Origin: Solidesulfovibrio sp.
Lineage (GTDB): Bacteria; Desulfobacterota; Desulfovibrionia; Desulfovibrionales; Desulfovibrionaceae
Direction of reading: 5' to 3'
DNA length: 64,000 bases
Assembly: GCF_038562415.1 (NCBI RefSeq)
Contig: NZ_JBCFBA010000021.1
Span: 5,951-69,950 of the forward strand
In this document: positions 29,289 through 47,017 of the stretch, one piece after another
Numbering within the stretch: the first letter of the stretch is position 1
How the letters are laid out: every line of letters begins with the position of its first letter
Position numbers and translations under genes: made by a program
Notes under the pieces: generated by a model
The model's input: only the letters and a program-made list of their open reading frames with translations
Databases searched by the model: none
Told to the model about the DNA's origin: nothing

Positions 29289-29741
29289 ATGATCGTGGGC
29301 CTGGGCCTGGACGTCGTGGAACTGCCGCGCATCGCCTCGGCCCTGGCGCGCTTCGGCGACCGGTTCGTGGCGCGCATCCTTACGCCGGCCGAACGGGCCG
29401 CCCTGCCCGCGCGCCCGCTGTCCCGGGTGGCCGGGCTGTTCGCGGCCAAGGAGGCGGCCGCCAAGGCCCTGGGCACGGGCTTTGCCCAGGGCATCGGCTT
29501 CCAGCACCTGGAAATCCTGTCCGACCACCTCGGCCGGCCGACGCTTGGCCTCCACGGCCCGGCCCTCGAACGCGCAAGAGCCCTCGGCGCCACCTCCTGG
29601 CACGTCAGCATCAGCCACGAACACGGCACGGCCGCCGCCGTGGTGGTGCTGGAACTGGCCAGCGGCTGCGGGCGCTGGAAAAAGCGCGCCGCAAAAGAGG
29701 CGGAGGGAATCAAGACAAAAAACGAAAGGCCCGGCGTCTAA
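29289..29741 (+). CDS. acpS: Holo-[acyl-carrier-protein] synthase AcpS
   Basis: AcpS transfers 4'-phosphopantetheine from CoA to apo-ACP. The 150 residues include [12 protein letters not shown] (metal-binding Asp) and [15 protein letters not shown] near residue 55, both diagnostic. It is about 25 residues longer than E. coli AcpS. The basic tail ([20 protein letters not shown]) runs into a terminator hairpin, and the stop codon lies in its loop. This 3' end also falls in the duplicated attachment region of the adjacent island. Confidence 0.94.
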
Positions 29742-29792
29742 CCGGGCCTTTCGCAAGGGAAATTCGTGGGGTGACTGATGGGACTCGAACCC
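29717..29792. repeat. Left attachment repeat (attL) with acpS terminator and tRNA-His remnant
   Basis: This 76-base segment matches 46891-46966 with three mismatches. It contains the terminator hairpin (29725-29734 with 29742-29751) in which acpS ends, and at 29767-29792 the last 26 bases of a tRNA-His gene (minus strand). The sequence diverges from the tRNA right after position 29792, which marks the crossover side. Confidence 0.9.
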
Positions 29793-29989: not shown

Positions 29990-31219
29990 ATGCCTGCCAG
30001 AAAAAATGGCCTCAAATATCCGGTCGACTCCCGTCGCTGGCCAGGCATCTATGCCTACGATTCCGACAAACGCAGCTTCCAGGGGCGCCCCGACCAGTGC
30101 CTCTATCTATGTTTCCGTCTCGACGGCAAACTCATCTGGGAAAAGGTTGGCTGGAAGTCCGAGGGCTACACCCCGCAGGTGGCCGCCGAACTTCGGGCCG
30201 AACGGGTCAAGGTGGCACGGCATGGAAACGAGGTGAAAACGCACAAGGAAATCCGACAAGAGAAGGCGCGTCTGGACAGGACACTTGATGAGATCGCCGC
30301 TGCCTACTTCGAAACCAGAGGCCCGAGCATGAAGGGGCGTGGCGCTGTCATCGACCGCTACCGCTATGAAAAACATGTCGCCCCGCACCTCGGCAGGCGC
30401 CCGGCCAGTTCCCTGGCCCCCCTGGATATGAACCGCATCGAAAGCGCCATGAAGGGGTTGTCCATCACGAGCGTGTGGGCGGCGCTGGAAATCCTGCGCC
30501 GTGTCGTCAATTTCGGGGTCAAACACAGCATGTGCCCTCCCCTGCCCTTCAAAATGCAGCTGCCACGTAAGAATAATGAGGTAACGGAATACCTCGACCC
30601 CGAAGCATTGCAGCGCCTGCTGTCGGTGCTGGACGACTGGCCTTCCCCGGACGTGGCCAGAATGCTCAAGCTGGCGATGTTCACTGGAATGCGCCGGGGC
30701 GAGGTATTCGCCCTGTCGGACGGTGATGTGGATTTCCGCCAGGGACTCCTCACCCTGCGCGGGGCGGACGGTCGTGGTCCCAAGGGTGGGGTCACGGTAA
30801 GCGTGCCCATGTCCGAGCCGGTGCGGCGACTCCTTGAGAAGCAAATCGAATGGCGCGACACGAAGTTCCCGGACTCCCCCTATCTGTTCCCGGGCAAGGA
30901 GGGAAAATTGCGCTTCGACTGCACGGCAGTGTACCGGATCAAAAAGAAGGCCCAATTGCCACCAGCTTTTCGAATTTTTCACGGCCTAAGGCATCATTTT
31001 GCCGTGACATTGGCCAATTCTGGGGAGTTCACCCTGGACATGATCGGCGAACTGCTCACCCACAAGGATACGAAGGTGACCAGACGCTACGCCAAGTTCC
31101 TGCCGGACACGAAGCGCAAGGCCATTTGCCGGGCGGCGGAATTGCTGGAAACGCAGACAAAGGTCGAGACCAAGGAGCATCCAACTCGGAAAATTGCGAA
31201 GCTCGCAAAGTCCGTTTAA
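29990..31219 (+). CDS. int: Tyrosine-type site-specific integrase
   Basis: The 409-residue recombinase has an N-terminal DUF4102-like/arm-binding region, a SAM-like core-binding domain (about 98-185) and a catalytic domain with R235 (TGMRRGEV), H331 and R334 (HGLRHHF), H358 (LLTHKD) and the nucleophile Y367 (VTRRYAKF). This is the complete R-H-R-H-Y set. It would catalyse insertion at the tRNA-His 3' end and, with a directionality factor, excision. GGAGGG lies before the ATG. The next gene on the strand is 103 bases away. Confidence 0.93.
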   Translation: MPARKNGLKYPVDSRRWPGIYAYDSDKRSFQGRPDQCLYLCFRLDGKLIWEKVGWKSEGYTPQVAAELRAERVKVARHGNEVKTHKEIRQEKARLDRTLDEIAAAYFETRGPSMKGRGAVIDRYRYEKHVAPHLGRRPASSLAPLDMNRIESAMKGLSITSVWAALEILRRVVNFGVKHSMCPPLPFKMQLPRKNNEVTEYLDPEALQRLLSVLDDWPSPDVARMLKLAMFTGMRRGEVFALSDGDVDFRQGLLTLRGADGRGPKGGVTVSVPMSEPVRRLLEKQIEWRDTKFPDSPYLFPGKEGKLRFDCTAVYRIKKKAQLPPAFRIFHGLRHHFAVTLANSGEFTLDMIGELLTHKDTKVTRRYAKFLPDTKRKAICRAAELLETQTKVETKEHPTRKIAKLAKSV

Positions 31220-31322
31220 AAAAACGCACGACAATCAAACTCATCAATGGTATCCCACTGCGGCAACATATTGCTTAGACTTTATACATTTCGAGACAAT
31301 ATCAAACAAAAGGATACCGCAC

Positions 31323-32558: not shown

Positions 32559-34958
32559 ATGTACAAAGAACATATTGACGAATTTCGCGCCTTCCTCGAA
32601 AGCGTGGCACTGCGCCCTGCCGACATCATCGCTGACGGGAAGATTCACCGCTGCGGCACCGTCGGCAAAGAGCAAGGCGCAGACGGTTCCTATTTGCTCT
32701 ATCCCGATTTCCCTCTTTACGGTCGCTGCTGGAACTTTCGAACCGGCGAAGAGGCCGTCTGGACGAAAGAAACCTCAGTTCCGCTCTCAAGTGAAGCACG
32801 CGCCAAGATCGAGACCGCGAGAAAAGTACGACAGCAGACTGAGGATGCACGCGCCGCCACCGCTCGCAACAACGCGCAGAGCATTTGGGGCGCGGCTAGG
32901 CCCGCACCTGGCGACCACCCCTATTTTATCAAGAAGGGCGTTAAGCCGCATGGGAACATCCGCATTGCTCAAGACGGGCGGCTGGTGGTTCCCGTGTTTG
33001 ACGCCAACGGAACCCTTCTCTCCCTCCAGTTCATCTCCGCAATGGGGGAGAAACGATTCCTCTCCGGGGGCAGGGTGCGAGGTGGTTTTTTTCAGATCGA
33101 TGGCAACAATGGCCCTCTTTACATAGCTGAAGGCTATGCCACCGGCGCAACCATCCATGCAGCCACCGGAGAGCATGTTCTTGTAGCCTTCAACTGTGGG
33201 AATCTCCTGGCCGTGGCAAAAGTTGTGCGCCAAATTTACCCAAATCGCTCCATTATCATTTGCGCTGAGGATGACCACGCCACAGCGGTTAACACTGGGA
33301 AAAATCCGGGAATCGAAAAAGCCACTGAAGCGGCCATGTCGATCAGTGGCCTTTTAGCCATACCTGTATTTCAGGACCCCGCTGGCAAATCGGATTTCAA
33401 TGACCTCGCGGCCACCGAAGGTCTCGAAGCCGTCAGAACTTGCCTACGTGCAGCGAAATCCGTAGCGCCGCCCCGTGTTTCTCATGGGTCTGGCCTCGCG
33501 CCGGTCCCTTTTGAAAACACTATCCCGCCGTCGATCCCGCCGGAGCATGTGCCTGGCATCCTTCGGGACTTTTCCTTGGCATTGTCGGAATCCCTGCAAG
33601 TCCCCTTCGAGCTGGCCTTATGCAATGCCCTTGGAACCGTGGCCGTAGCTGCCCAACGCAAAATCCAGGTTCTGATCAAAGAGGGTTACACGGAACCACT
33701 CAATATCTATGCATTATGCCCCCTTCCACCAGGCGAGCGCAAAAGTCCTACGGTCGAAGCATGCAAAGGCCCTTTAGTCGAATGGCAAAGCGCCAACTAT
33801 CATGCAATGCGAGACATCATCCTGGATGCTGCAAGTGAACGAAAGACCCTTGAGAAAGCCATAGAAGCCAAGCGCGGACTGGTTGCAAAAGCGAAAAACG
33901 ACGAGGCTCGTCGTGTACTCATAGAGGACATCAAGAGCATGGAACGGGCACTCCCTGAAGTACCCATATCGCCCCGCCTGCTCGCGGATGATTTCACTCC
34001 AGAGGCCCTTGGCATGCTCATGGAACGTCATGAACAACGTATCGGAGTACTTGAGGCTGAGGGAGGGCTCTTTGACACGTTGTCCGGGAGATATTCCAAC
34101 GGCATCCCAAATCTCGACGCCGTACTCAAGTTCTGGTCCGGGGAGTCCTGCCAGATAGATCGTCGAGGCCGCGACTCCATCTTTCTTGACGATCCGCATT
34201 TAACGCTTGTTATTTCCACGCAGCCGGAAATCGTCCAGGGACTTGCCGATCGTCCGGGCTTCAGAGGACGAGGTCTGATCGGAAGATTCCTCTATGTCAT
34301 ACCCCAAAGCCGCCTGGGATGGCGATCCGTCGAAACCAAGCCCGTGTATCCCGGATTGATGAAATTATGGAGGGACACAATCCACAAGCTTCTGGACCTG
34401 CCATGGGCGCGTGGCACCCATGGGGAGGCAATCCCATACGATATCCAGCTGGATAAAACGGCTTATCGACAGTGGCAAGAATATGCCGCAAGCGTGGAAA
34501 AGGAGCTTGGGCCGGGCGGGCAGTTCGAAAACATGACAGACTGGGCAGGCAAACTTCCGGGCCAGATCATACGCTTGGTCGGGCTCTTTCATGTAGCGAC
34601 GGACCCCGATCCGCTGGACAAGCCCATTGCAACCGCCACAATGACAGATGCCCTGGTTGTTGCCGCGATCCTGGCCGAACATGCCAAAGCGGCCTACGGG
34701 CTCATGGGGTCCGACCCGTCCCAGGATTGCGCCAAAGCCATTTTGCGCTGGATCAAACGCGATCGTGTGGAACGGTTCAGCGCCCGCGATACACTCGAGA
34801 AAGTCAAGGGACGTTTCCCAACCATGGAAAAAGTCAATCCAGGGCTCTCAATCCTGATTGAGCGGGCTTTCATCTTCGAGACGGCCCCTGAGCCTCACAA
34901 GGGTCCGGGGCGCAAGCCCAGCACAACCTTCACAGTTAATCCCAAACTGTGGGAGTGA
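32559..34958 (+). CDS. Toprim/DUF3987 satellite primase-type protein
   Basis: The 799-residue protein has an N-terminal region resembling DUF7146/primase zinc-less domains (1-130), a Toprim domain (about 180-290, with YIAEGYATGATIHA and later a DDHATA pair and DPAGKSDFNDLA) and a large C-terminal DUF3987-type region (about 330-770, containing CPLPPGERKSPTVEAC in the position of a P-loop). Such fusions replicate plasmids, phages and satellites. A ribosome site GAGG precedes the ATG. There is no coding neighbour for 562 bases downstream. Confidence 0.85.
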   Translation: MYKEHIDEFRAFLESVALRPADIIADGKIHRCGTVGKEQGADGSYLLYPDFPLYGRCWNFRTGEEAVWTKETSVPLSSEARAKIETARKVRQQTEDARAATARNNAQSIWGAARPAPGDHPYFIKKGVKPHGNIRIAQDGRLVVPVFDANGTLLSLQFISAMGEKRFLSGGRVRGGFFQIDGNNGPLYIAEGYATGATIHAATGEHVLVAFNCGNLLAVAKVVRQIYPNRSIIICAEDDHATAVNTGKNPGIEKATEAAMSISGLLAIPVFQDPAGKSDFNDLAATEGLEAVRTCLRAAKSVAPPRVSHGSGLAPVPFENTIPPSIPPEHVPGILRDFSLALSESLQVPFELALCNALGTVAVAAQRKIQVLIKEGYTEPLNIYALCPLPPGERKSPTVEACKGPLVEWQSANYHAMRDIILDAASERKTLEKAIEAKRGLVAKAKNDEARRVLIEDIKSMERALPEVPISPRLLADDFTPEALGMLMERHEQRIGVLEAEGGLFDTLSGRYSNGIPNLDAVLKFWSGESCQIDRRGRDSIFLDDPHLTLVISTQPEIVQGLADRPGFRGRGLIGRFLYVIPQSRLGWRSVETKPVYPGLMKLWRDTIHKLLDLPWARGTHGEAIPYDIQLDKTAYRQWQEYAASVEKELGPGGQFENMTDWAGKLPGQIIRLVGLFHVATDPDPLDKPIATATMTDALVVAAILAEHAKAAYGLMGSDPSQDCAKAILRWIKRDRVERFSARDTLEKVKGRFPTMEKVNPGLSILIERAFIFETAPEPHKGPGRKPSTTFTVNPKLWE

Positions 34959-35520: not shown

Positions 35521-37626
35521 ATGACTTCCGAGACGCATTTTCAGATCGCCAATTTCATCTGGAGCATCTGCAATCTGCTCCGTGGCCCGTACAAGCGAAA
35601 CGAATATCGCAAGGTCATCTTGCCGCTGACGGTGCTTCGTCGTTTTGACTGTCTGCTTGCGCCAACGAAAGCAGATGTACTCAAGGAATACTCCCGCATA
35701 GAAGGGAAGCCGACAACCGTTATCAGCGGCCTACTCCAAAGGATCACGGGACATCAGTTCTATAATCTATCAAAACTTGATTTTAAAAGACTGCTTGACG
35801 ATCCAAACCAATTGGCGATCAATCTCAACAGTTACATCAAAGACTTCTCACCAAATGTTCGTACCATCATGGAGAAGTTCGCTTTTGAGCAACAAATTGC
35901 CAAAATGGCCGACAAGAACATTCTTTTCTTGGTGATAAAGGCCTTTTGCGACGAAAAAATGGACTTGTCCGCCGAGAAAGTGGACAATCTGCAAATGGGG
36001 TACGTGTTCGAGGAACTCATCCGGATCGGCGCGGAACAGGCCAACGAGGAGGCCGGGGAGCATTTCACGCCGCGCGAAGTCATCAAGCTCATGGTCAACC
36101 TGCTGCTCTCGCCGGAAAATGATCTGCGCCGCAGCCATGTGGTCAAAACCATCTACGATCCGGCCTGCGGCACGGGCGGCATGCTGTCCGTGGCCGAGAA
36201 GTACATCCGTACCCTCAACTCGGAAGCCGATCCGCACCTTTTCGGCCAGGACTGGAACGACGAGGCCTGGGCGGTCTGCAAATCCGACATGCTCATCAAG
36301 GGTGATGATTCCGAGAATATCCGCCTGGGCAACAGTTTCACCGAAGACGCCTTTGACCGAGATATCCAGGACAACAAGATCACCTTCGACTATATGCTGG
36401 CCAATCCGCCTTTTGGCGTCGAATGGAAGCAGCAGGCCAAATTCATCGAGGACGAGCACGTCAATCTTGGCTATGCCGGCCGGTTTGGGGCGGGCACGCC
36501 GCGCATCAACGACGGTTCTCTGCTTTTCTTGCAGCACATGCTTTCCAAGATGCGCGCGCCCAAGGACGGCGGCGGTCGTATCGGCATCGTCTTCAACGGC
36601 TCGCCGCTTTTCACCGGCGACGCGGGCAGCGGCGAGAGCAACATCAGGCAATGGATCATCGAGAACGACTGGCTTGAAGCCATAGTGGCCCTGCCGGACC
36701 AGCTTTTCTACAACACCGGCATCGCCACCTATATCTGGATTCTCACCAACCGGAAGGAACCGGCCCGCAAGAGAAAGGTTCAGCTGATCGACGCGCGGCA
36801 ATTCTTCGTGAAAATGAAAAAGAGCCTGGGCAACAAGCGCAACAAGATCGGCGACGCCGAGGAGGGCGAAGCGGACCAGATCGGCGACATCACCCGCATC
36901 CACGGGGCGTTCCGGGACGGCGAAATCCGCGAACGGGGAACGAACGGCGGAACCAAAACCTTTGTGGTCAGCAAAGTTTTCGACAATGAGGATTTCGGGT
37001 TTCGCAAGATCACGGTGGAGCGCCCCTTGCGCCTGAACTTCCAGGCCAGCCCCGAGCGCATTGCCCGTATCGAGGAAGAGACCTCCTTCCGCAATCTGGC
37101 GTCCAGCAACAAGAAATCGGAGAAGGTGCGGCTCCAGGAAATCGAGGAGGGCAGGAAGCGGCAAGAGATCATCCGTGCCATGCTGCGCCGGCTTGGCGAG
37201 GAGACGAAGGCCGAGGTCTTCCTGTCCCGCGAGACGTTCTTGGCCAAGCTCAAGGCCCTGGACCGCAAGCTTGGCGTCCGCCTGTCCACGGCCGAGCGCA
37301 AGGCTGTGCTTTCCGCGTTGTCCGAGCGGGACGAGGCCGCCGCAATCTGCCGCGACGGGCAGGGCAATCCCGAGCCCGACGTGGATTTGCGGGACACGGA
37401 ATGCGTGCCGCTTAAGCAGGACGTCGAGGCGTATTTCCGCCGGGAGGTGCTACCGCATGTCCCGGATGCCTGGATCGACCACGCCAAGACCAAGGTGGGC
37501 TATGAGATTCCGCTCAACCGGCATTTCTACCGCTACGAGCCGCCGCGCCCCTTGGAGGAGATCGAGGCGGACATCAGGGCGCTTGAGGGCGAGATCATGG
37601 CCATGCTGCGCGAGGTGACGGCATGA
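35521..37626 (+). CDS. hsdM: Type I restriction-modification methyltransferase subunit HsdM
   Basis: The 701-residue protein has the N-terminal helical HsdM domain (about 8-150), EHFTPREVIKLMV near 180, the SAM-binding DPACGTGGM from residue 213 and the N6-adenine motif NPPFG from residue 295. It methylates adenine in the sequence read by HsdS, protecting host DNA. The C-terminal part (about 480-701) is a long extension beyond the usual length of roughly 500-530 residues, with coiled-coil and EIEADIRALEGEIMAMLREV at the end. Its stop overlaps the rhuM start by 4 bases. Confidence 0.93.
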   Translation: MTSETHFQIANFIWSICNLLRGPYKRNEYRKVILPLTVLRRFDCLLAPTKADVLKEYSRIEGKPTTVISGLLQRITGHQFYNLSKLDFKRLLDDPNQLAINLNSYIKDFSPNVRTIMEKFAFEQQIAKMADKNILFLVIKAFCDEKMDLSAEKVDNLQMGYVFEELIRIGAEQANEEAGEHFTPREVIKLMVNLLLSPENDLRRSHVVKTIYDPACGTGGMLSVAEKYIRTLNSEADPHLFGQDWNDEAWAVCKSDMLIKGDDSENIRLGNSFTEDAFDRDIQDNKITFDYMLANPPFGVEWKQQAKFIEDEHVNLGYAGRFGAGTPRINDGSLLFLQHMLSKMRAPKDGGGRIGIVFNGSPLFTGDAGSGESNIRQWIIENDWLEAIVALPDQLFYNTGIATYIWILTNRKEPARKRKVQLIDARQFFVKMKKSLGNKRNKIGDAEEGEADQIGDITRIHGAFRDGEIRERGTNGGTKTFVVSKVFDNEDFGFRKITVERPLRLNFQASPERIARIEEETSFRNLASSNKKSEKVRLQEIEEGRKRQEIIRAMLRRLGEETKAEVFLSRETFLAKLKALDRKLGVRLSTAERKAVLSALSERDEAAAICRDGQGNPEPDVDLRDTECVPLKQDVEAYFRREVLPHVPDAWIDHAKTKVGYEIPLNRHFYRYEPPRPLEEIEADIRALEGEIMAMLREVTA

Positions 37627-38660
37627 CGGACGGGCAGCCGGGCGGGGAAATCCTCCTGTATCAGACCGAGGACGGGCGCTCCCGCATCCAGGTCCGTTTC
37701 GAGTCCGGGACGGTCTGGCTTTCGCAACGGCATATGGCCGAGCTGTTCCAGACGACCGTGGCCAACGTGAACACCCACTTGCGCAACATCTTTGGGGACG
37801 GGGAACTTGCGGCCGAGGCAGTTATTAAGGAATCCTTAATAACTGCAACCGATGGGAAACGTTACAAAACCAAGTTTTACAATCTCGACGCCATCCTTTC
37901 AGTGGGCTACCGGGTCCGGTCCCACCGAGGCACCCAGTTCCGCCAGTGGGCCACGCAGCGGTTGCGGGAATACCTGGCCAAGGGGTTTGCCCTGGATGAC
38001 GAACGGCTCAAGGAGGCCGGCGGCGGGGACTTCTTCGACGAACTGCTTGCCCGCATCCGGGACATCCGGGCCAGCGAGCGGGTTTTCTGGCGCAAGGTGC
38101 TCGACATCTACGCCACCAGCATGGATTACGATCCGTCCGCCGAGGCGTCCAAGCGGTTTTTCGCCACCGTGCAAAACAAGATGCACTTCGCCGCCCATGG
38201 GCACACCGCCGCCGAGGTCATCCATCTTCGGGCCGACGCTTGCGCGCCGCACATGGGGCTGACGTCGTTTTCCGGGCTCCGGCCGCGCCAGCAGGATGTG
38301 GAGGTGGCCAAGAACTACCTTGGGCCTGAGGAACTTGACACCCTCAACCGCATTGTTTCGCTCTATCTGGATTTCGCGGAATTGCAGGCGCTCAATCGCA
38401 CGCCCATGCACATGCGGGATTGGATCGCCAAGCTGGATGATTTCTTGCGCCTGAGTGGCCGGGAGGTGTTGCAAAACGCCGGCACGGTGAGCCACGAGCA
38501 GGCCTTGACCAAGGCGCGCGGGGAATACGAGCGGTTCCGTCTGGCGCACGCCGACGACGCGAGGCCGGTGGATCGGGATTTTGAAGCCACGGCCAAGGCC
38601 TTGGAGCTGGCCGGAAAGTCTCGCCCGCGCCGGGGCAAGAAAGGGGGCAAGGCGTCGTGA
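37623..38660 (+). CDS. rhuM: RhuM family protein embedded in the RM operon
   Basis: The 345-residue protein matches the RhuM (virulence_RhuM) family: VWLSQRHMAELFQTTVANVNTH near residue 27, KFYNLDAILSVGYRVRS near 82, GTQFRQWATQRLREYL near 103 and the C-terminal NRTPMHMRDWIAKLDDFL near 255. The N-terminal part resembles an HTH DNA-binding domain. RhuM genes often sit inside type I RM operons, but their role there is not established. Both ends overlap neighbours by 4 bases. A perfect 29-base palindrome lies inside the coding sequence. Confidence 0.88.
   Translation: MTDGQPGGEILLYQTEDGRSRIQVRFESGTVWLSQRHMAELFQTTVANVNTHLRNIFGDGELAAEAVIKESLITATDGKRYKTKFYNLDAILSVGYRVRSHRGTQFRQWATQRLREYLAKGFALDDERLKEAGGGDFFDELLARIRDIRASERVFWRKVLDIYATSMDYDPSAEASKRFFATVQNKMHFAAHGHTAAEVIHLRADACAPHMGLTSFSGLRPRQQDVEVAKNYLGPEELDTLNRIVSLYLDFAELQALNRTPMHMRDWIAKLDDFLRLSGREVLQNAGTVSHEQALTKARGEYERFRLAHADDARPVDRDFEATAKALELAGKSRPRRGKKGGKAS
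37818..37846. repeat. Perfect 29-base palindrome inside rhuM
   Basis: Two 14-base arms (37818-37831 GCAGTTATTAAGGA and 37833-37846) flank one central A. It is AT-rich within a GC-rich gene and encodes AVIKESLITA. A perfect inverted repeat of this length inside a coding sequence is unexpected; it could form a cruciform or hairpin in the mRNA, or be a protein-binding site. Confidence 0.7.
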
Positions 38661-40009
38661 AATATCCGGCGTATCCGAAGTACAAGGACAGTGGCGTGGA
38701 GTGGCTGGGGGAAGTGCCGGAGCATTGGGAACTTTCTAGATTTTCCAAAAAAGTCTTTATAGCAGAAGGGCAAGTCAACCCAGAAGAATCTCCTTATCTT
38801 GATATGTTTTTGATCGCGCCCAATTATATCGAATCGGGAACAGGGAGACTACTTTCTAAAGAGACTGCAGCTGAACAGGGTGCTGAAAGTGGAAAGTACT
38901 TTTGCATGAATGGCGATGTAATATATTCAAAGATTAGGCCGTCGCTCGCAAAGGTCGTGATGGCTTCGGAAGACTGTCTTTGTAGTGCTGATATGTACCC
39001 ATTAAGAGGCAAGGGAGGGGTATGTAATAAATTTATTTACTGGGTGTTGTTGTCAAGGTGGTTTATTGCATGGTCTGTTCTTGAGTCTGACAGAGTTGCC
39101 ATGCCAAAAATTAATAGAGAAAGTTTGAATAGTTGTCTCTTATGCCTGCCTTCTCTCCCAGAACAGCAAGGGATTGCGACCTTCCTGGACGCCCAGACAT
39201 CCAAACTCGACGCCCTCATAGCCAAGAAACGCGAACTGATTGCCAAGCTCCAGGAAAAGCGCGCCGCACTCATCACCCGCACCGTCACACGCGGACTGCC
39301 GCCGGAAGCCGCCAAGGCCGCCGGGCTTGATCCGCATCCGAAGATGAAGGACAGCGGCGTGGAGTGGTTGGGGGAGGTGCCGGAGCATTGGGAAATCAAG
39401 CGATTGAAGTACCTTTCCCCAGGTATAACTGTTGGAATCGTTATCGAGCCGTCAAAATATTATGAAGAAAGCGGTATCCCTTGCCTGAGATCGTTAAATG
39501 TAAAACAAAACTTTTTGGAATATAATAACTTGGTATACATATCTGCCGAATCTAATATTTTACTCAGTAAGTCTATGCTTCATAAGGGAGATTTAGTGAT
39601 TGTCAGAACTGGACAACCTGGAACAACCGCAGTTATTGATGAGAAATTTGACAAATCAAACTGCATAGATTTGATTATTGTGCGCCAATCAAGGTGCCAG
39701 TCTGGACATTTCTTAAGTTACTTTTTAAACTCTAAGCAAGGCCAAATTCAGTTTTGCGAAGGGTCTGGAGGAGCAATTCAGCAGCACTTCAATATATCAA
39801 TAGCTTCAAATTTGATTATTGCTGCGCCTCCTCTTGCTGAGCAAGTTAGTATAGTTGACTATCTCAACTCCGAAGTAGCAAAGATTGATGCTCTTCTCAA
39901 AGCTACAGAATCTGCCATCGAACGCTTACAAGAATACCGCTCCGCCCTCATTACCGCCGCCGTGACCGGAAAAATCGACGTCCGAAACATTCCCCCGGAG
40001 GCCGCATGA
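38657..40009 (+). CDS. hsdS: Type I restriction-modification specificity subunit HsdS
   Basis: The 450-residue protein has two target-recognition domains (about residues 20-175 and 245-405), each followed by a conserved helix (QGIATFLDAQTSKLDALIAKKRELI near 170-195; VSIVDYLNSEVAKIDALLKA near 395-415). It chooses the DNA sequence methylated or cut by the complex. Each half begins with DSGVEWLGEVPEHWE. The DNA of the recognition domains is clearly more AT-rich than the conserved parts, a sign of domain exchange. It starts at GTG, overlapping the rhuM stop. Confidence 0.93.
   Translation: MKYPAYPKYKDSGVEWLGEVPEHWELSRFSKKVFIAEGQVNPEESPYLDMFLIAPNYIESGTGRLLSKETAAEQGAESGKYFCMNGDVIYSKIRPSLAKVVMASEDCLCSADMYPLRGKGGVCNKFIYWVLLSRWFIAWSVLESDRVAMPKINRESLNSCLLCLPSLPEQQGIATFLDAQTSKLDALIAKKRELIAKLQEKRAALITRTVTRGLPPEAAKAAGLDPHPKMKDSGVEWLGEVPEHWEIKRLKYLSPGITVGIVIEPSKYYEESGIPCLRSLNVKQNFLEYNNLVYISAESNILLSKSMLHKGDLVIVRTGQPGTTAVIDEKFDKSNCIDLIIVRQSRCQSGHFLSYFLNSKQGQIQFCEGSGGAIQQHFNISIASNLIIAAPPLAEQVSIVDYLNSEVAKIDALLKATESAIERLQEYRSALITAAVTGKIDVRNIPPEAA
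38684..38731 (+). repeat. HsdS internal direct repeat, copy 1
   Basis: These 48 bases match 39347-39394 with three mismatches and encode the start of the first recognition half (KDSGVEWLGEVPEHWE). The two copies, 663 bases apart, would let recombination swap or delete a recognition domain. Confidence 0.85.
39347..39394 (+). repeat. HsdS internal direct repeat, copy 2
   Basis: Second copy of the 48-base repeat, at the start of the second recognition half. Near-identity at DNA level, greater than needed to keep the protein sequence, suggests recent duplication or gene conversion. Confidence 0.85.
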
Positions 40010-41016
40010 GCAACAACAGCTTTGGCGGGAAGGATCGTTACTACAGTAGCACCCCACCCGACGACTCGTATCGGAAAAGCCACCTCTCCAAGACCGAAGA
40101 GGAAATAAAAGCGGCCTTGCTCGTCGTCGATCCGGATATACAACGCCGCATCGAACGCACCTTTCGCCAGTGGAATACTATCATACGCGAACAGCTCCGA
40201 AACGAAATGGGCCTTCGCCTCACGGTGAGTGGGGAATACCAATCTGTGCCTGTCCGGATAGCTACAGGGCTTGCCCGACCCTTGCACGACGCCTTCCGAA
40301 ACATGGAGCCACTCTATTGGCAACTGTTGTTCAACAGAGGAATGCTGGAAGCTTCAAAACCAGGCCTTTCGTTTTTATTTAGCAACTGCCATGCCATAAC
40401 CGTCCAAACTGTCCAAGAACCCTGCTTGCATATCCAAAAATCACTCCAATACATAGAGACAATTCTCGCAAGCTTGGACAAAGAAAAACTTCTTCAACAA
40501 GCTCTTGCCATCGAGCATGACCTTCTCGGAGCATACTTTTACAACAACTCCCAAATCGAACTGTATTGGATGGCCATCGGCCTTGTCGCCGGAAGCCTCG
40601 GTATAAAGCCGGAAGCACTGACCCTCGTCGTCGCCATCCATGAACTGGCCCATGCCTATTCCCACCTCGGCAAAGATATCGACGGCACACAATGGGATAA
40701 GAGCAACTTTGAAAATGCCGATCTCCATATTGTCGAGGGCATAGCACAGCACTACACAAAGGTTATTTGCCATACCATGGATACGCGCCTACCTGGGACC
40801 CAAAAAGCCTTTGAAACACTTCTCTGCTACCAATCAACGCCATACACTATCTTTAAAGAGTGGAATCTTCCTCCAGAATCCGGCGGTGAAGTCGTCCGCC
40901 TTGCAATGATCGCCTGCCGTTCCCAAGGCATAACGGAATACTTTTCTTTCCAAGAAACCATGAAAAACTATGAGAACATAAAGCAAAACCCGTCCAGACA
41001 GGCCAAACCCGCATGA
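40006..41016 (+). CDS. Gluzincin-like putative metallopeptidase embedded in the RM operon
   Basis: The 336-residue protein has no named family that can be recognised. It contains VVAIHELAHAYSH (HExxH at 212-216) and, 28 residues later, VEGIAQHYTK with E244, the arrangement of a zinc gluzincin active site (two His, one Glu, catalytic E213). No signal peptide or membrane helix is seen, so it should act in the cytosol. The N-terminal 150 residues are helical without motifs. Its start overlaps the hsdS stop and its stop overlaps the next start, both by 4 bases, so it is made together with the RM complex. Role unknown: maturation, control or an effector are options. Confidence 0.75.
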   Translation: MSNNSFGGKDRYYSSTPPDDSYRKSHLSKTEEEIKAALLVVDPDIQRRIERTFRQWNTIIREQLRNEMGLRLTVSGEYQSVPVRIATGLARPLHDAFRNMEPLYWQLLFNRGMLEASKPGLSFLFSNCHAITVQTVQEPCLHIQKSLQYIETILASLDKEKLLQQALAIEHDLLGAYFYNNSQIELYWMAIGLVAGSLGIKPEALTLVVAIHELAHAYSHLGKDIDGTQWDKSNFENADLHIVEGIAQHYTKVICHTMDTRLPGTQKAFETLLCYQSTPYTIFKEWNLPPESGGEVVRLAMIACRSQGITEYFSFQETMKNYENIKQNPSRQAKPA

Positions 41017-41942
41017 GCGACATCAAACTCTTCCGTATCAACCAGGACAGCGTTGCCGAACTCCACGGCCAGTCCCTGGCCCTGGAAAAATCGCTGCAAA
41101 CGCTCATGGAACAACACCTGGACGCACTCCTCGGCGTACGCTTCCTGGCCTCGGAATATTCCACAGGCGTCAAGCATAAGGGCCGCATCGACACCCTCGG
41201 CATCGACGAAAACGGCTGCCCCGTCATCATCGAATACAAGCGGGCGACCAACGAAAACGTCATCAACCAGGGGCTTTTCTACCTGGACTGGCTCATGGAC
41301 CATCAGGCTGAATTCAAGCTGCTGGTCCTGGAACGCTACGGCCGCGATGCCGCGAACACCATCGAATGGGGCTCCCCGCGCCTGCTGTGCATCGCCGGCG
41401 ACTTCACACGCTACGACGAACACGCCGTGGCGCAGATCAACCGCAACATAGAACTCATCCGCTACCGCCATTACCCCGAAGGCTTCCTCATACTGGAGAT
41501 GGTCAACGCCGTGACGGGAGTCAACGGCAGCGCCTCCCCCGCCCCCTCCCCGGGGGGGGGGCACGCGGAAACGGACAGGCCGGCGGTAAAAACCGTCTCC
41601 GACTACCTGAGCCTAGCGCAGCCCGAGGTCAAAGACCTCTACCACGCCCTCGAAGACTACCTGCTCGCCCTCGGCGATGACGTGCCCAAAAAGGTCCTCA
41701 AGCACTACATCGCCTTCAAACGCATCAAGAACTTCGCCTGCGTCGAGGTCGGCGTCCAGGCCAAACGCCTCGTCGTGGCCGTGAAATGCCCGCCCACCCC
41801 GGAAAACATCATCGAAGGCCTCACCCGCGACGTGCGCAATATCGGCCACCTCGGCACCGGGGACATGGAAATCACCATCAACACCATGGATGATTTCGAA
41901 CGCGCCAAGCCGTTTCTGGAAAAAAGCTACCAAGCCAGCTGA
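41013..41942 (+). CDS. PD-(D/E)XK nuclease-like protein with C-terminal DUF5655
   Basis: The 309-residue protein has an N-terminal restriction-endonuclease-like domain (about 1-160). GRIDTLGIDENGCPVIIEYKR gives the D-x(n)-ExK set (D65 region and EYK near 77-79), similar to the NucS/DUF91 type. A linker of Ser, Pro and Gly (about 172-190) is followed by a DUF5655-like domain (about 195-305: LSLAQPEVKDLYHALEDYLLAL, then KNFACVEVGV). A G10 homopolymer lies in the linker. It probably binds or cuts nucleic acid. It is coupled to the gluzincin gene (ATGA) and 17 bases before hsdR. Confidence 0.8.
   Translation: MSDIKLFRINQDSVAELHGQSLALEKSLQTLMEQHLDALLGVRFLASEYSTGVKHKGRIDTLGIDENGCPVIIEYKRATNENVINQGLFYLDWLMDHQAEFKLLVLERYGRDAANTIEWGSPRLLCIAGDFTRYDEHAVAQINRNIELIRYRHYPEGFLILEMVNAVTGVNGSASPAPSPGGGHAETDRPAVKTVSDYLSLAQPEVKDLYHALEDYLLALGDDVPKKVLKHYIAFKRIKNFACVEVGVQAKRLVVAVKCPPTPENIIEGLTRDVRNIGHLGTGDMEITINTMDDFERAKPFLEKSYQAS
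41552..41561 (+). repeat. G10 homopolymer in a coding linker
   Basis: Ten consecutive G encode part of Pro-Gly-Gly-Gly between the nuclease-like and DUF5655 domains. Loss or gain of one G would put the downstream part out of frame, removing the C-terminal domain and uncoupling hsdR translation. Such tracts are a known mark of phase-variable genes. Confidence 0.8.
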
Positions 41943-41959
41943 CAGCAGGGAGGGACCCC

Positions 41960-44900
41960 ATGCCCGGGCAAACCACAGAGAAGGCTTTCGAATCCTACGT
42001 GGAAACCATACTGCTCGAAAAGGCGGGCTGGACGCGGGGCGACCTCGCCTCCTGGGATGTGGAGAAAGCCCTGTTCCCGGCGGACGTGCTGGCTTTTTTG
42101 GCCGACTCCCAGCCAGAGTTGTGGAACAAGATGCGCGCCCTGCATGGCGCTGGCCTGGGAGCGCTCCTCATCGCCTCGCTGCTCAAGGAACTCGACCTCA
42201 AAGGAGCACTCCACGTTCTGCGCCACGGGTTCAAATGCCACGGCAAGACTCTTCGGCTGGCCTATTTCAAACCCGCCCATGGCCTCAACGCCGCAGTACA
42301 GAACCTTTACGCAAAGAACCGGCTCACCGTGACCCGGCAAGTTCCCTGTCACCCTGGCCGCGCCGACACCATCGACCTGCTCTTTGCCGTAAACGGCTTG
42401 CCCGTGGCCACCTGCGAACTGAAAAACCCGGGCACCGGCCAGACCTGGCGGCACGCCGTGGGCCAATACATGCGCGACCGTGACCCCACGGCCCCGCTTT
42501 TCGCGTTCAAGAAACGGGCACTCGTGCACTTCGCCGCCGACCCCGACGAAGTGCATATGACCACCCGTCTGCAAAAAGACGCCACCTATTTCCTGCCGTT
42601 CAACCGAGGCAGCCGGCCCGGAGCCGTCGCATGCGGCGCGGGTAACCCACCCCATCCTTCCGGGTATCGCACGGGCTACCTCTGGGAAGAAGTGCTCGCG
42701 CGGGACAGCCTGCTCACGATCATCGGCGACTACATGTTTCTGGAACGCAAGGAGGAAAAATCCGACGACGGCACCGGTGGGAAAAAACGCCTCGTAAAGG
42801 AAAAACTCATTTTCCCACGCTATCATCAGCTCGACGCCGTGGGAAAACTCGTCGCCGCCGCCCGCACTGAAGGCACAGGGCACAATTATCTTATCCAACA
42901 TTCCGCCGGCAGCGGCAAAACTAACAGCATCTCCTGGTTGTCCCACCGACTGTCAAGCCTGCACAACACCGTTGACGAAAAGCTGTACGATTGCGTCATC
43001 GTCATCACGGATCGCCGCGTGCTCGACAAGCAGCTCCAAGACGCTATCTACCAGATCGACCACGCCCAGGGCGTGGTCAAAGCCATTGATCAGGATTCAA
43101 AACAGCTTACGGAAGCCCTCATCGACGGCACCAAGATCGTGGTAACAACGCTCCAGAAATTTCCGTTTGTGCTGCGAGGCCTGCTCACCGCCGCCGGAGC
43201 CGAAAGTCAGGACAACGCGTCCGATGAGGAAAAACGGCAGGCGAAGGAATGGGAGCGAGCCATTGCGCAACGACACTATGCGATCATCGTGGACGAAGCC
43301 CACTCCAGCCAGACGGGAGAAACCGCGCGCGAGCTCAAGGCCATACTGGGAAACAGGGCGAAGGAGACGGAAGAAGGCGCAATCACCTGGGAAGACCGTC
43401 TCAACCAAGTCATGGAGTCGCGCGGCCGACAGCCCAATTTGAGTTTTTTCGCCTTCACCGCAACACCAAAGGGCAAGACCATAGAACTATTTGGCCGTCC
43501 CGGACCAAGCGGCAAAAAGGAATCTTTCCACATCTACAGCATGCGCCAAGCCATCGAGGAAGACTTTATCCTCGACGTGCTGACCAACTACACGACATAC
43601 GCCACGTATTTCAAGCTCATCAAGGCCGCCGAGGACGATCCAAGGTTGCCGAAGAAAAAGGCCGTGCGTGCTCTGGCCAAGTTCATGAGCCTACACCCGC
43701 ACAATATCGAACAGAAAACAGAAGTGATCGTGGAACACTTCCGACGCAGCGTACGCCCTCGCCTCAACGGCCGGGGCAAGGCAATGGTGGTCACGTCTTC
43801 CCGCTTGCACGCCGTGCATTACATGTTGGCCTTTGAGCGCTACATCGCCGAGAATCGCTATACCGACATCATGCCCCTGGTCGCTTTCAGCGGCACGGTG
43901 AAAGATCAAGAAACAGGCCTGGAATATACCGAACCCGGCATGAATACAGATGTAATGACCGGCAAGCCCATAAGCGAGGCCCAGCTTCCGGGCCGGTTCG
44001 CTTCAATGGATTACAATATCCTGCTCGTGGCCGAAAAATACCAGACAGGCTTCGACCAACCACTCTTATGCGCCATGTACGTGGACAAGCGCCTGGATAA
44101 TGTGCAGGCGGTACAGACGCTTTCCCGGCTCAACCGCAAGATTCCTGGCAAGGAAAGCCCATTTGTACTCGATTTTCGAAACGAGGCGGAAAATATCTAC
44201 CGCGCTTTCAAACCGTACTACGACAAAACGAGTCTTCAGGAAGCGTCCGATCCCTCCAGCCTCGAAACGCTCAAACACGAACTCGATAAATCCCAAGTGT
44301 ATTATTGGAGCGAGGTGGAGGCCTTCGCCAGGATTTTTTACAAGCCAGTTTCCAACCAAAATCCCCGCGACCACGCGGCTATGGAAAAATGGTTGCAACC
44401 AGCGGTAGACCGTTTCAAAGCCATCCCTGACGAGGATGCACAACAGGAGTTGCGCGACACACTCAGCGGCTATGTCAAGATGTACTCGTTTTTGAGTCAA
44501 ATTATTCCTTATACAGACCCGGATTTGGAGATGCTCTACAGCTTCGGTCGGTTCCTTCTGCCGCACCTGCCGCTTGACCACGACGGCGGCGCTGTGACGG
44601 TCCGCGACGAAGTGGGGTTGCGGTACTACCGCCTTGAGCGCGTCTTCTCAGGAGCCATCAGCCTCAAGGAGGGCGACGATCCAGGCGTGAAGAGCCCAAC
44701 AGAAGTCGGCACGGGCAAGGTCAAAGAAGAGAGCGCCCCGCTCTCCGAAATCATCAAAACGCTCAACGAACGATTTGGCACCAAGTTCACGGAAAAAGAT
44801 CGCTACTTCTTCATGCAACTCAGGGAGAAAGCCCGTCACAGTGATCGCATTATTAAAACTGTAAAGGCGAATAAGGACTTAGACAAATTCATGCTAGGAA

Positions 44901-45067
44901 TTGAAAAACTCATCTCAGAGTACATGATTGAATGCATTGCCGACGACGACGCGATTGCAACACGTTACATGGAGGACGCACAGTTCCGTGGCATCGTCCT
45001 ACCATTTCTTGCAAAAGATATTCATGAAACCGTTACACTTGATTTGGCATTGATCGACCCTCAATAA
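41960..45067 (+). CDS. hsdR: Type I restriction endonuclease subunit HsdR
   Basis: The 1035-residue protein has an N-terminal nuclease domain (about 80-260; DLLFAVNGLPVATCELKNP is the D-x(n)-ExK site near 135-155), a superfamily 2 helicase motor (Walker A GSGKT at 317-321, DEAH at 445-448, FTATPKGKT near 497, motif VI near QTLSRLNRKIPGK around 720) and a C-terminal HsdR coupling domain. It translocates and cuts DNA lacking the methyl mark. Size and order are normal. It is last in the operon, 17 bases after the nuclease-like gene. Confidence 0.94.
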   Translation: MPGQTTEKAFESYVETILLEKAGWTRGDLASWDVEKALFPADVLAFLADSQPELWNKMRALHGAGLGALLIASLLKELDLKGALHVLRHGFKCHGKTLRLAYFKPAHGLNAAVQNLYAKNRLTVTRQVPCHPGRADTIDLLFAVNGLPVATCELKNPGTGQTWRHAVGQYMRDRDPTAPLFAFKKRALVHFAADPDEVHMTTRLQKDATYFLPFNRGSRPGAVACGAGNPPHPSGYRTGYLWEEVLARDSLLTIIGDYMFLERKEEKSDDGTGGKKRLVKEKLIFPRYHQLDAVGKLVAAARTEGTGHNYLIQHSAGSGKTNSISWLSHRLSSLHNTVDEKLYDCVIVITDRRVLDKQLQDAIYQIDHAQGVVKAIDQDSKQLTEALIDGTKIVVTTLQKFPFVLRGLLTAAGAESQDNASDEEKRQAKEWERAIAQRHYAIIVDEAHSSQTGETARELKAILGNRAKETEEGAITWEDRLNQVMESRGRQPNLSFFAFTATPKGKTIELFGRPGPSGKKESFHIYSMRQAIEEDFILDVLTNYTTYATYFKLIKAAEDDPRLPKKKAVRALAKFMSLHPHNIEQKTEVIVEHFRRSVRPRLNGRGKAMVVTSSRLHAVHYMLAFERYIAENRYTDIMPLVAFSGTVKDQETGLEYTEPGMNTDVMTGKPISEAQLPGRFASMDYNILLVAEKYQTGFDQPLLCAMYVDKRLDNVQAVQTLSRLNRKIPGKESPFVLDFRNEAENIYRAFKPYYDKTSLQEASDPSSLETLKHELDKSQVYYWSEVEAFARIFYKPVSNQNPRDHAAMEKWLQPAVDRFKAIPDEDAQQELRDTLSGYVKMYSFLSQIIPYTDPDLEMLYSFGRFLLPHLPLDHDGGAVTVRDEVGLRYYRLERVFSGAISLKEGDDPGVKSPTEVGTGKVKEESAPLSEIIKTLNERFGTKFTEKDRYFFMQLREKARHSDRIIKTVKANKDLDKFMLGIEKLISEYMIECIADDDAIATRYMEDAQFRGIVLPFLAKDIHETVTLDLALIDPQ

Positions 45068-45076
45068 ATACACTAG

Positions 45077-45997
45077 TTAATACCACCCTTCAGGCACAAC
45101 GAGACTTGATAGCATGTGTATATACTTTTCAACAAACGGCAGAATCTTCGGGTCAATTGGTATTTTTTCGCGGACAATTTGACATTCAAATTCTCGATAA
45201 GCAGGATCATCAAATATATCAACCTCGTTTAGACCAGTCTTCTCCATCCAAGCCTTTTCTGCAAAATCTGACACCGCATCAACAGTTGCATCGTCTGAAT
45301 TATGCCAAAGATACTGGTGCACCAAGTCAGGATGACTTGCCGCAGTTGTTAGCAGAGTCGTCAATGAATGGTACAATTTCTCCCGTGATGTTTTGCAATA
45401 AATCCACCCACAGCAAGCATCTGAATTTCGATTGCCATGGTCACGCACTGCGAAGACGATATCTTTAAGGTCTGATGTATTAAAGACATGAAACTCATAC
45501 AAAAAAGACATATCGTGGTTTACAGAAACATGACCTTCCCTGTTTTCCCTGACAAACGAAGCTAACGTACAAAAGGCTGGGAAAGGGTCGGCGATGAGCT
45601 CGTCGCCCCAAACAACCAATGCATTGTTGTCAGTGAGTATGTTAATTTTTACATCATGCCATCGAAACCATTCGAGTTCCCATCTTATTTCAAGACATGG
45701 GAGTTCCTCGTAGAATTGAACGAATGGAACATCCCTTGGCAACCACATATTAATTGCCGGATCGATAAGCCACCCTTTGCTCAACGTCATTTCATCAGCA
45801 GCATATTGGCGAAAATCAGAAGCACCTTTGAATTGTCCTATTACTCTGAGCTCAAGAACATCGTATCCATCTTTCAACAATCGCGCAGATAGCTCTTCAG
45901 GATTGCCGGGGCGTGTCCCTATTCGCCAACCCGGTTCTCCGGCCAACTGTACCCCGAAGGCGGTAAACGGAGTCAGCTTAATTCTGTTTTTGGCCAT
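45077..45997 (-). CDS. Island protein of unknown function, convergent with hsdR
   Basis: The 306-residue soluble protein is not recognised. It is rich in Trp, Asp and Glu, with segments such as WELEWFRWHDVKINIL and VRENREGHVSVNHDMSFLYEF and a CC pair near residue 215 (DACCGWIYC). It ends 9 bases from the hsdR stop with opposite orientation. The ATG at 45997 has AAGGT upstream; an earlier in-frame TTG would add 30 residues. GC content is lower than core genes. It may be an independent accessory gene of the island. Confidence 0.65.
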   Translation of the reverse strand: MAKNRIKLTPFTAFGVQLAGEPGWRIGTRPGNPEELSARLLKDGYDVLELRVIGQFKGASDFRQYAADEMTLSKGWLIDPAINMWLPRDVPFVQFYEELPCLEIRWELEWFRWHDVKINILTDNNALVVWGDELIADPFPAFCTLASFVRENREGHVSVNHDMSFLYEFHVFNTSDLKDIVFAVRDHGNRNSDACCGWIYCKTSREKLYHSLTTLLTTAASHPDLVHQYLWHNSDDATVDAVSDFAEKAWMEKTGLNEVDIFDDPAYREFECQIVREKIPIDPKILPFVEKYIHMLSSLVVPEGWY

Positions 45998-46074
45998 CAC
46001 ATGCGACCTTGCAGTACCTATTGCCACGAGGCAACTACCGTCGGGAGAATTAGTCTGTACGTCCCTGAGTTGAG

Positions 46075-46103
46075 TTGACAAAATCAAAATACAGTATTAT
46101 TAA
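46075..46103 (+). promoter_or_regulatory. Consensus-like sigma-70 promoter
   Basis: TTGACA (46075-46080), a 17-base spacer and TATTAA (46098-46103) form a near-consensus promoter reading right. No plus-strand gene of normal size follows; the transcript would run antisense to the transposase remnant to the hairpin at 46899-46925. It may drive an RNA or short peptide, or be a chance match in AT-rich DNA. Confidence 0.4.
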
Positions 46104-46253: not shown

Positions 46254-46778
46254 TCAATTCTTGAGGGCGGCTCCGGGGTTTGAAGTCCTACCGAGCATTC
46301 GAGCAAAAAGCCCCGGCGTCATTTTGCCGAGGCTCAAATGTAGTCGCACCACGTTGTAGGTCCTGCGTCAATCCTCGACGACCACCTTGGCTTCCGTCCG
46401 GGAGCGGAACCATTCCATGAAGAGGCATTCGTCCCGGAATTTGCCGTAGAAGATCTCGACCAAGCCGTTTTGCCAGAGCTTGCCGGGATCGATCAGGGCG
46501 ACATCGAGCTCTTGGTTCGCCACCCAGCGCAGGAGCGCCTTGGACACACACTCCGGGCCATTGTCCGAACGCAGATGATGCGGCGCCCCGCGTTCGCTGA
46601 CCAGACGCGACAGGATTTCTATCTTCCAATTTGACCGGATACTCCCAACGACGTCAAGGGTAAGACACTCCCTGGTATATTCGTCAATAATCGTAGGGCA
46701 TTTGAGTTGCTGCCCATTGGCGCAGGACATGAACTGCGAATATGCGAATTTTGCGACAATAAGAAATGTCGGAGTCAC
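46254..46778 (-). pseudogene. IS3-family transposase (OrfB) remnant
   Basis: This is the C-terminal half of an rve-type DDE transposase: CANGQQLKCPTIIDEYTREC, LRSDNGPECVSKALL (catalytic Asp), DPGKLWQNGLVEIFYGKF and RDECLFMEWF. The N-terminal half and any OrfA are missing. In the region that normally reads EDWRRxYN, the Trp codon is TGA (46368-46370), and the same frame continues RRTYNVVRLHLSLGKMTPG to a stop at 46254. Both changes make it non-functional. No terminal inverted repeats were found. Confidence 0.82.
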
Positions 46779-46890: not shown

Positions 46891-46966
46891 AAAAAACGAA
46901 AGGCCCGGCGACTAACCGGGCCTTTTTCAAGGGAAATTCGTGGGGTGACTGATGGGACTCGAACCC
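46891..46966. repeat. Right attachment repeat (attR)
   Basis: The 76 bases match 29717-29792 with three mismatches. It holds a terminator hairpin (46899-46908 with 46916-46925) and the last 26 bases of the intact tRNA-His (46941-46966). The island thus rebuilds both the tRNA 3' end and its terminator. A 22-base arm-type repeat (46875-46896) overlaps its left edge. Confidence 0.9.
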
Positions 46967-47017
46967 ACGGCAACCAGGGCCACAACCTGGGACTCTACCA
47001 ACTGAGCTACAGTCACC
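46941..47017 (-). tRNA. tRNA-His (GTG anticodon)
   Basis: The minus-strand sequence folds as a full tRNA: acceptor GTGACTG/CAGTCAC, D-arm with AGCTCAGTTGGTAGAG, anticodon stem CCAGG/CCTGG with loop TTGTGGC (anticodon GTG), T-arm GTGGG TTCGAGT CCCAT. C73 and an encoded CCA are present, and the base at 47017 supplies the extra G-1 typical of tRNA-His. It is the integration target of the adjacent island and remains intact. Confidence 0.95.

What the first reader, a model, noticed from the sequence alone, without database searches (positions are those of the whole stretch)
35521..45067. Type I RM operon with three embedded accessory genes, including a gluzincin-like protein
The order is hsdM, rhuM, hsdS, HELAH protein, PD-(D/E)XK/DUF5655 protein, hsdR. 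The first five genes are joined by 4-base ATGA or GTGA overlaps and hsdR follows by 17 bases, so all six are likely co-translated. RhuM in type I operons is known; a HExxH...E gluzincin plus a second nuclease-like protein in the same unit is not a combination I know. It may be an enlarged anti-phage system in which a protease and a nuclease act with the RM complex.
Basis: partly seen in the sequence, partly recalled or inferred. Interest (0 to 1): 0.75.

Follow-up and report, generated by a model that had tools for sequence, protein, structure and literature searches.

The report
Restriction operon carrying an uncatalogued metallopeptidase
A mobile DNA island in a bacterium carries a common phage-defence operon with three extra genes packed inside it, and one of these belongs to a rare, unnamed family of zinc-protease-like proteins that also turns up near several unrelated phage-defence systems.

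Summary
The operon sits in a 17.2-kb integrative island at tRNA-His with att repeats. Embedded genes are usual for this type I RM lineage: 25 of 28 assessable relatives in its phylum carry at least one ORF, and the closest (hsdM 76%, hsdR 75%) carries Abi_2 instead. RhuM recurs (5 of 34). The DUF5655 nuclease is a catalogued candidate (PADLOC PDC-S18) and recurs between hsdS and hsdR elsewhere. The HELAH protein is the new part. No scanned family model claims it. Its nine known members share invariant H-E-H...E gluzincin ligands, and its predicted fold resembles M1 aminopeptidases. In 7 of 9 loci it is in or within about 4 kb of defence genes: type I RM twice, Zorya twice, BREX, a type III-like methylase with a helicase, and a GmrSD/PLD-helicase/methylase cluster. 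In 4 of 9 a nuclease-like gene adjoins it. So it looks like a defence-associated cargo peptidase, not an RM subunit. The mechanism is inferred: a peptidase effector or activator layered on DNA restriction.

The parts
29717..29792 (+). attL: left copy of the att repeat, duplicating the 3' end of tRNA-His (39, 20 and 14 bp exact)
   Evidence: exact-match script
29990..31219 (+). tyrosine recombinase (integrase) of the island
   Evidence: PF00589 1.2e-19
35521..37626 (+). hsdM, type I DNA methyltransferase subunit
37623..38660 (+). rhuM, embedded in the hsdM-hsdS slot (PADLOC candidate PDC-S05)
   Evidence: PF13310 1.5e-111; PDC-S05 2.5e-143
38657..40009 (+). hsdS, specificity subunit, GTG start
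   Evidence: PF01420 with two stretches; PADLOC 1.2e-110
40006..41016 (+). HELAH protein (336 aa): gluzincin-like metallopeptidase of an uncatalogued, defence-associated family; H212, E213, H216, E244
   Evidence: no family above cut-off; ligands invariant in 9 of 9; fold; contexts
41013..41942 (+). DUF5655 protein (309 aa), PADLOC PDC-S18, N-terminal PD-(D/E)XK-type region with D60, E74, K76
   Evidence: PF18899 3.2e-12; PDC-S18 8.2e-143; invariant motif
41960..45067 (+). hsdR, restriction subunit (HSDR_N nuclease domain and SWI2/SNF2 motor)
46891..46966 (+). attR: right copy of the att repeat, reaching into the 3' end of tRNA-His
46941..47016 (-). tRNA-His(gtg), integration site of the island
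   Evidence: ARAGORN

Best explanation
This is a horizontally acquired type I restriction-modification operon with two cargo slots: RhuM sits between hsdM and hsdS, and HELAH plus the DUF5655 nuclease sit between hsdS and hsdR. The RM core does ordinary modification and restriction. The HELAH protein is a zinc gluzincin with an intact active-site motif (H212, H216 and E244 as ligands, E213 as catalytic base), of an unnamed, rare family that recurs among DNA-targeting defence systems. Most likely it is a separately acting layer: when infection is sensed or restriction fails, it cleaves a phage or host protein, or activates a neighbouring nuclease, and so adds a protein-level step to DNA cutting. 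Shown here: operon structure, motif conservation, a predicted zincin-like fold, recurring defence neighbours, cargo turnover on the RM backbone. Inferred: metal binding and peptidase activity, the trigger, the substrate, and any action on phage.
Confidence: 0.6

Rival explanations
1. HELAH is a cis-encoded regulatory peptidase of restriction: it removes HsdR or stalled restriction complexes, or a repressor, to prevent self-damage when the island enters a new host (restriction alleviation).
For: In EcoKI, restriction alleviation works by ClpXP proteolysis of restriction complexes (PMC11109961, abstract), so a protease in an RM operon fits. HELAH lies upstream of hsdR with only the DUF5655 gene between. 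An annotated SprT-family peptidase follows hsdR in Rhizobium pRPC2.
Against: Relatives lie near Zorya and BREX genes, with no hsdR recognised in the stretches held. None of 34 related RM loci has HELAH, so this RM core does not need it.
Confidence: 0.17
2. HELAH and the DUF5655 nuclease (with or without RhuM) are stoichiometric partners of the HsdRMS complex, an enlarged RM machine.
For: 4-base overlaps suggest coupled translation. A second type I RM operon (L005) also has HELAH directly after hsdS. DUF5655 recurs between hsdS and hsdR in Cupriavidus and Acinetobacter plasmids.
Against: HELAH is mostly outside type I RM operons (7 of 9 loci). Neither HELAH nor DUF5655 was found in 34 related RM loci. 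The core's closest relative carries other cargo.
Confidence: 0.08
3. HELAH is an anti-restriction or DNA-protein-crosslink type peptidase, like ArdC, SprT or IrrE, carried by the mobile island for its own benefit.
For: 7 of 9 members match SprT-like weakly (best E 0.0032). [quoted passage not shown] The operon is on an integrative island.
Against: No ArdC-type domain appears in the Pfam scans (the domain names are recalled). It is co-operonic with the restriction genes rather than opposed to them. No relative was found in 50,697 phage records or by two pattern scans of viral contigs. In ArdC the protease activity was not needed for anti-restriction.
Confidence: 0.1

Closest known systems
E. 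coli RRDM island (RptR, type I RM, DarTG2, M48 metallopeptidase), PMC12255303 (passages seen)
   Same: Type I RM operon with other defence genes between hsdS and hsdR, a predicted zinc metallopeptidase in the same island, on mobile DNA; the island as a whole protects against phages.
   Different: There the peptidase is predicted M48 and follows hsdR; here it is embedded before hsdR, and M48 is hit by only one family member (E 0.026), not by the window protein. Cargo here is RhuM and a DUF5655 nuclease, not DarTG. A RptR-like regulator was not specifically looked for.
Genes embedded in defence operons (PADLOC PDC candidates; 'guilt-by-embedding', Payne et al. 2024 preprint, not read, cited in PMC12988326 and PMC12255303, passages seen)
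   Same: rhuM is PDC-S05 and the DUF5655 gene is PDC-S18; both are embedded within the RM operon.
   Different: HELAH has no PADLOC match better than E 0.062, so it is not among the candidates of the 2023 library.
RM operons with RhuM and PrrC-like toxins (HEPN survey, PMC3710099, passages seen)
   Same: RhuM inside an RM operon as part of a proposed multi-level defence.
   Different: No PrrC or DOC domain among the scanned genes here; a metallopeptidase and a DUF5655 nuclease instead.
M1 aminopeptidases and other MA-clan gluzincins (SprT, M48, M91, ArdC, IrrE)
   Same: HExxH plus glutamate-helix ExxA; M1 structures are among the best matches of the model; one member hits M1 at E 0.00065.
   Different: The window protein is below the Pfam cut-off for all; no sequence match in the PDB by profile; different genomic setting.

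Membership tests
Type I restriction-modification operon | hsdM, hsdS and hsdR with their domains in one operon | tested here: met
   N6_Mtase and HsdM_N, Methylase_S, HSDR_N with SWI2/SNF2, all + strand and contiguous
Type I restriction-modification operon | Methylation and ATP-dependent restriction activity | not testable with these tools
   needs methylome or restriction assays
RhuM family | Virulence_RhuM domain PF13310 above cut-off | tested here: met
   372.1 bits against 33.7
PADLOC PDC-S18 / DUF5655 | DUF5655 domain and full-length PDC-S18 match | tested here: met
   46.9 bits against 24; E 8.2e-143 over residues 1-308
PD-(D/E)XK nuclease superfamily (DUF5655 protein) | conserved D...ExK residues | tested here: met
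   D60, E74, K76 invariant in 6 of 6 and 7 of 7 aligned sequences; fold and activity not tested
NucS endonuclease (DUF5655 protein) | NucS_C above Pfam cut-off | tested here: not met
   22.6 bits against 24
Gluzincin (MA clan) metallopeptidase (HELAH) | HExxH with a downstream Glu in an ExxA-type glutamate helix | tested here: met
   H212, E213, H216, E244, A247 invariant in 9 of 9; signature as given in PMC7213743
Gluzincin (MA clan) metallopeptidase (HELAH) | zincin fold | tested here: inconclusive
Gluzincin (MA clan) metallopeptidase (HELAH) | zinc-dependent peptidase activity | not testable with these tools
   needs purified protein
Named peptidase families M1, M48, M91, SprT-like (HELAH) | Pfam gathering score for the window protein | tested here: not met
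   only M91 hits it, 17.1 bits against 25; other members have weak hits to these families
EPEC RRDM-type island | DarTG2 and M48 peptidase with type I RM | tested here: not met
   neither among the ten window proteins scanned
Integrative genomic island | integrase, tRNA site and direct att repeats | tested here: met
   integrase, tRNA-His, 39-bp exact repeat at 29754 and 46928

The most novel reading that the evidence does not exclude
The HELAH gluzincin and the nuclease gene beside it form a two-gene protease-nuclease defence cassette. The nuclease is interchangeable (DUF5655 PD-(D/E)XK in the window, a small PD-(D/E)XK-like protein in L010, a PLD protein in L024, an endonuclease/exonuclease/phosphatase protein in L007), and the cassette is dropped into or beside otherwise unrelated defence systems (RM, Zorya, BREX). 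There the peptidase would unleash or license the nuclease when the host system is breached.
Probability: 0.25. Interest if true: 0.78.

Novelty: new variant of a known kind. Interest (0 to 1): 0.52.

Why it matters
Embedding of extra genes in type I RM operons is known, and the RhuM and DUF5655 parts are catalogued. What is added is a defence-associated gluzincin family that none of the scanned libraries names, found in or near five kinds of DNA-targeting defence and often next to a nuclease-like gene. If the peptidase acts against phage, it would add proteolysis to RM, Zorya and BREX loci and give a testable case of a protease layered on DNA restriction. The cargo survey also shows that this RM lineage is a good place to look for new defence genes.

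Tried and rejected
HELAH searches that found nothing: Pfam, PADLOC and NCBIfam above threshold and PHROGs at all, PDB profile search (only E 0.23 and 0.27, not over the motif), phages, viral contigs twice, and the single-protein genome-contig scan. Foldseek in PDB and in the viral library gave no E <= 0.001. P0002 has no PDB relative at E <= 0.1. The single-sequence AF2 model was useless (pLDDT 36). (phyla of G397 and G395) each returned only the centre genome, 1 of 398; the 20 match-free handles listed in each are the same, so they may be largely one sample. One search (297 genomes, own phylum again) returned only G112. L014 (Aeromonas) has no annotation and was not interpreted.

Considered and rejected: a bespoke RM complex (neither gene in 34 related RM loci); obligate HELAH-DUF5655 pairing (the one HELAH plasmid, pSR76, has no annotated DUF5655 protein in its stretch; 15 of the 45 DUF5655 plasmid records were not listed and most of the listed ones were not opened, so this is not exhaustive); membership in M91, M48, M1 or SprT (window protein below cut-off). 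Not run: a random-gene control for defence neighbourhoods, a tree of the nine members, a structure of P0002 (cap reached). Paper searches. In their listings and in the passages I read I saw no published HELAH-like defence peptidase, but most listed papers were not opened, so this is no proof of absence. A BREX survey (PMC12839542) holds no occurrence of zincin, metallopeptidase or metalloprotease. DUF5655 has no paper in the library.

Full report
OBSERVATION. Domains were confirmed with Pfam, PADLOC and NCBIfam. The operon lies on an island: a tyrosine recombinase at 29990-31219, tRNA-His at 46941-47016 on the minus strand, and a near-perfect direct repeat at 29717-29792 and 46891-46966 (39, 20 and 14 bp exact) that reaches into the tRNA 3' end. 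Flank GC is 68.7% on either side; hsdS is 45.8%, HELAH 49.7%, hsdM 57.5%, hsdR 55.9%. This is a 17.2-kb integrative element with an att duplication.

THE RM CORE AND ITS CARGO. hsdR relatives at E <= 1e-150 occur in 35 of 297 genomes of the phylum, own genome included. I fetched the upstream stretch of 34 of the 35 places other than the window's. A mechanical ORF call with BLASTP at 1e-5 against the six window proteins recognised hsdM in 28 of 34. Of the other six, five stretches are under 6 kb because a contig ends there; the sixth, L066, has only a tblastn match to hsdM. In 25 of these 28 at least one same-strand ORF of 100 aa or more other than hsdS lies between hsdM and hsdR (L065 counted for its rhuM, seen); the count includes some transposase-like and possibly spurious ORFs. 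L068, L077 and L082 have none. rhuM occurs in 5 of 34 as a called ORF and in 6 of 34 by tblastn; HELAH and DUF5655 occur in 0 of 34 by either method. Of 32 cargo ORFs listed I scanned 7 with Pfam: Abi_2, SLFN_AlbA_2, Fic, PLDc_2, DUF1016/YhcG and PRTase-CE were hit, one had no hit. The closest core (G296: hsdM 76%, hsdR 75% identical) has Abi_2 in the hsdM-hsdS slot and none of the three window cargo genes. So the operon type is a carrier whose cargo turns over, and an embedded gene is not evidence that its product joins the RM complex.

THE DUF5655 PROTEIN. It is PADLOC PDC-S18 (E 8.2e-143), with a DUF5655 domain at the C-terminus and a PD-(D/E)XK-like N-terminal part; D60, E74 and K76 are invariant in the sequences aligned. 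tblastn finds relatives in 45 of 72,556 plasmid records. I opened nine of them. It lies between hsdS and hsdR in Cupriavidus oxalaticus and Acinetobacter baumannii, after the second hsdS of an R-S-M-S cluster in Staphylococcus nepalensis, and beside a divergent hsdMSR in Rhizobium. No RM gene is annotated in the stretch shown for S. equorum, Streptomyces sp. NBC_01369 and Lichenicola. Streptomyces SNU607 has a cytosine methyltransferase some 5 kb away. The Aeromonas record has no annotation there. It is an independent, already catalogued candidate that often sits in or beside RM operons.

THE HELAH PROTEIN. No model in Pfam or NCBIfam passes its cut-off, PADLOC's best is E 0.062, and PHROGs has none (best Pfam hit Peptidase_M91, 17.1 bits against 25). 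With the window that is nine members. Their alignment keeps H212, E213, H216, Y218, G222, D224, E244, G245, A247 and Y250. This matches the gluzincin signature described in PMC7213743 (passages). Members have weak hits to SprT-like (7 of 9), M91 (7), M13 (3), M1 (1, E 0.00065) and M48 (1). AF2 on an 8-row alignment of window and the search for related loci sequences gives pLDDT 77 and pTM 0.79. VIA-align places 3cmn (titled a putative hydrolase with a novel fold) and M1 aminopeptidases on top, with DPP III, collagenases, YbeY and ACE2 below. Foldseek alone gives no significant match. I conclude that it is very probably a gluzincin, of no named family in these libraries.

CONTEXTS OF HELAH. (1) Window: between hsdS and the DUF5655 gene. 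(2) L005, Thiotrichaceae MAG: hsdM (46% to the window's), hsdS, HELAH with an in-frame stop, then contig end. (3) L007: endonuclease/exonuclease/phosphatase gene 80 bp upstream (PF03372, 5e-14), a divergent REase-ARP protein, and, beyond one ORF on the other strand, ZorD-C-B-A. (4) L024 (G112): a PLD-like gene 40 bp upstream (PF13091, just above cut-off) and ZorA-B-C-D from 0.7 kb downstream. (5) L009: BrxA, BrxB and BrxC directly downstream. (6) L010: a small protein directly upstream whose PD-(D/E)XK region aligns with the DUF5655 profile (hhalign probability 76.5; only sub-threshold Pfam hits), and, about 3.8 kb downstream, a large helicase (PADLOC PDC-S37, 8.1e-32, and Mokosh MkoA, 1.8e-30) and a type III-like methylase (9.3e-64). 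(7) L002, pSR76: GmrSD 0.8 kb upstream; a PLD-SNF2 helicase and an Eco57I-type methylase downstream. (8, 9) L006 and L008: no defence gene seen, HELAH near a contig end in both (one L006 neighbour scanned, no hit). So 7 of 9 loci have defence genes in or within about 4 kb. The two Zorya-linked members share only 26% identity, and ZorB is found in 4 of 198 genomes of the phylum, G112 among them, so these are probably two separate associations. A nuclease-like gene directly adjoins HELAH in 4 of 9 loci (window, L007, L010, L024): PD-(D/E)XK-like twice, PLD, and endonuclease/exonuclease/phosphatase.

MECHANISM. Most likely HELAH is a peptidase effector, or an activator of a nearby nuclease, that adds a protein-level step to DNA-targeting defence. 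The HEPN survey proposed such multi-level schemes for RM operons with RhuM or DOC (PMC3710099, passages), and the E. coli RRDM island protects against phages with a predicted M48 peptidase in the same unit (PMC12255303, passages; I saw no test of the peptidase itself in those passages). The regulatory alternative, a built-in restriction-alleviation protease, follows from ClpXP action on EcoKI (PMC11109961, abstract) but does not explain the Zorya and BREX contexts. None of this has been tested by experiment here.

VERDICT. Most of the unit is a new arrangement of known parts. The part worth following is the HELAH family, as an unnamed defence-associated gluzincin.

Noticed in passing
window 29717-29792 and 46891-46966: att direct repeat at the 3' end of tRNA-His bounds a 17.2-kb island that holds the integrase, a Toprim/DUF3987 gene, the RM operon and what looks by eye like an IS remnant (46288-46778).
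   Followed up: yes
window 32559-34958: 799-aa protein with Toprim_3 and DUF3987 domains, perhaps the island's replication gene.
   Followed up: partly
window 31194-32177 and 45077-46087: Two AT-rich ORFs (39% and 44% GC) without family hits above cut-off lie on either side of the main island genes; unknown function.
   Followed up: no
L091:7831-8823 and L093:5999-7009: The hsdS-hsdR slot of two RM relatives holds a 331/337-aa protein (MTLCxAW start) that looks by eye like an Ntn-hydrolase (proteasome-like); Pfam has no hit for the L091 copy. Possibly a second peptidase-type cargo.
   Followed up: partly
L013:2336-3076: Rhizobium pRPC2 has an annotated SprT-family metalloprotease directly after hsdR: another metallopeptidase linked to a type I RM operon.
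   Followed up: no
L062:7747-11946: In G296 the hsdS-like and hsdR-like parts lie in one open frame (1427 aa; match positions), a possible HsdS-HsdR fusion.
   Followed up: no
L005, end of locus: A short tandem repeat array follows the HELAH gene at the contig end (translation).
   Followed up: no
L031:11449-12378: Salipiger pPABY8: an annotated zincin-like metallopeptidase and an abortive infection protein follow a type I RM operon whose hsdS-hsdR slot holds three genes.
   Followed up: no
L025:6039-7983: Ketogulonicigenium pYP1: the hsdS-hsdR slot of a related RM operon holds an AAA ATPase and an annotated retron-type HNH endonuclease.
   Followed up: no
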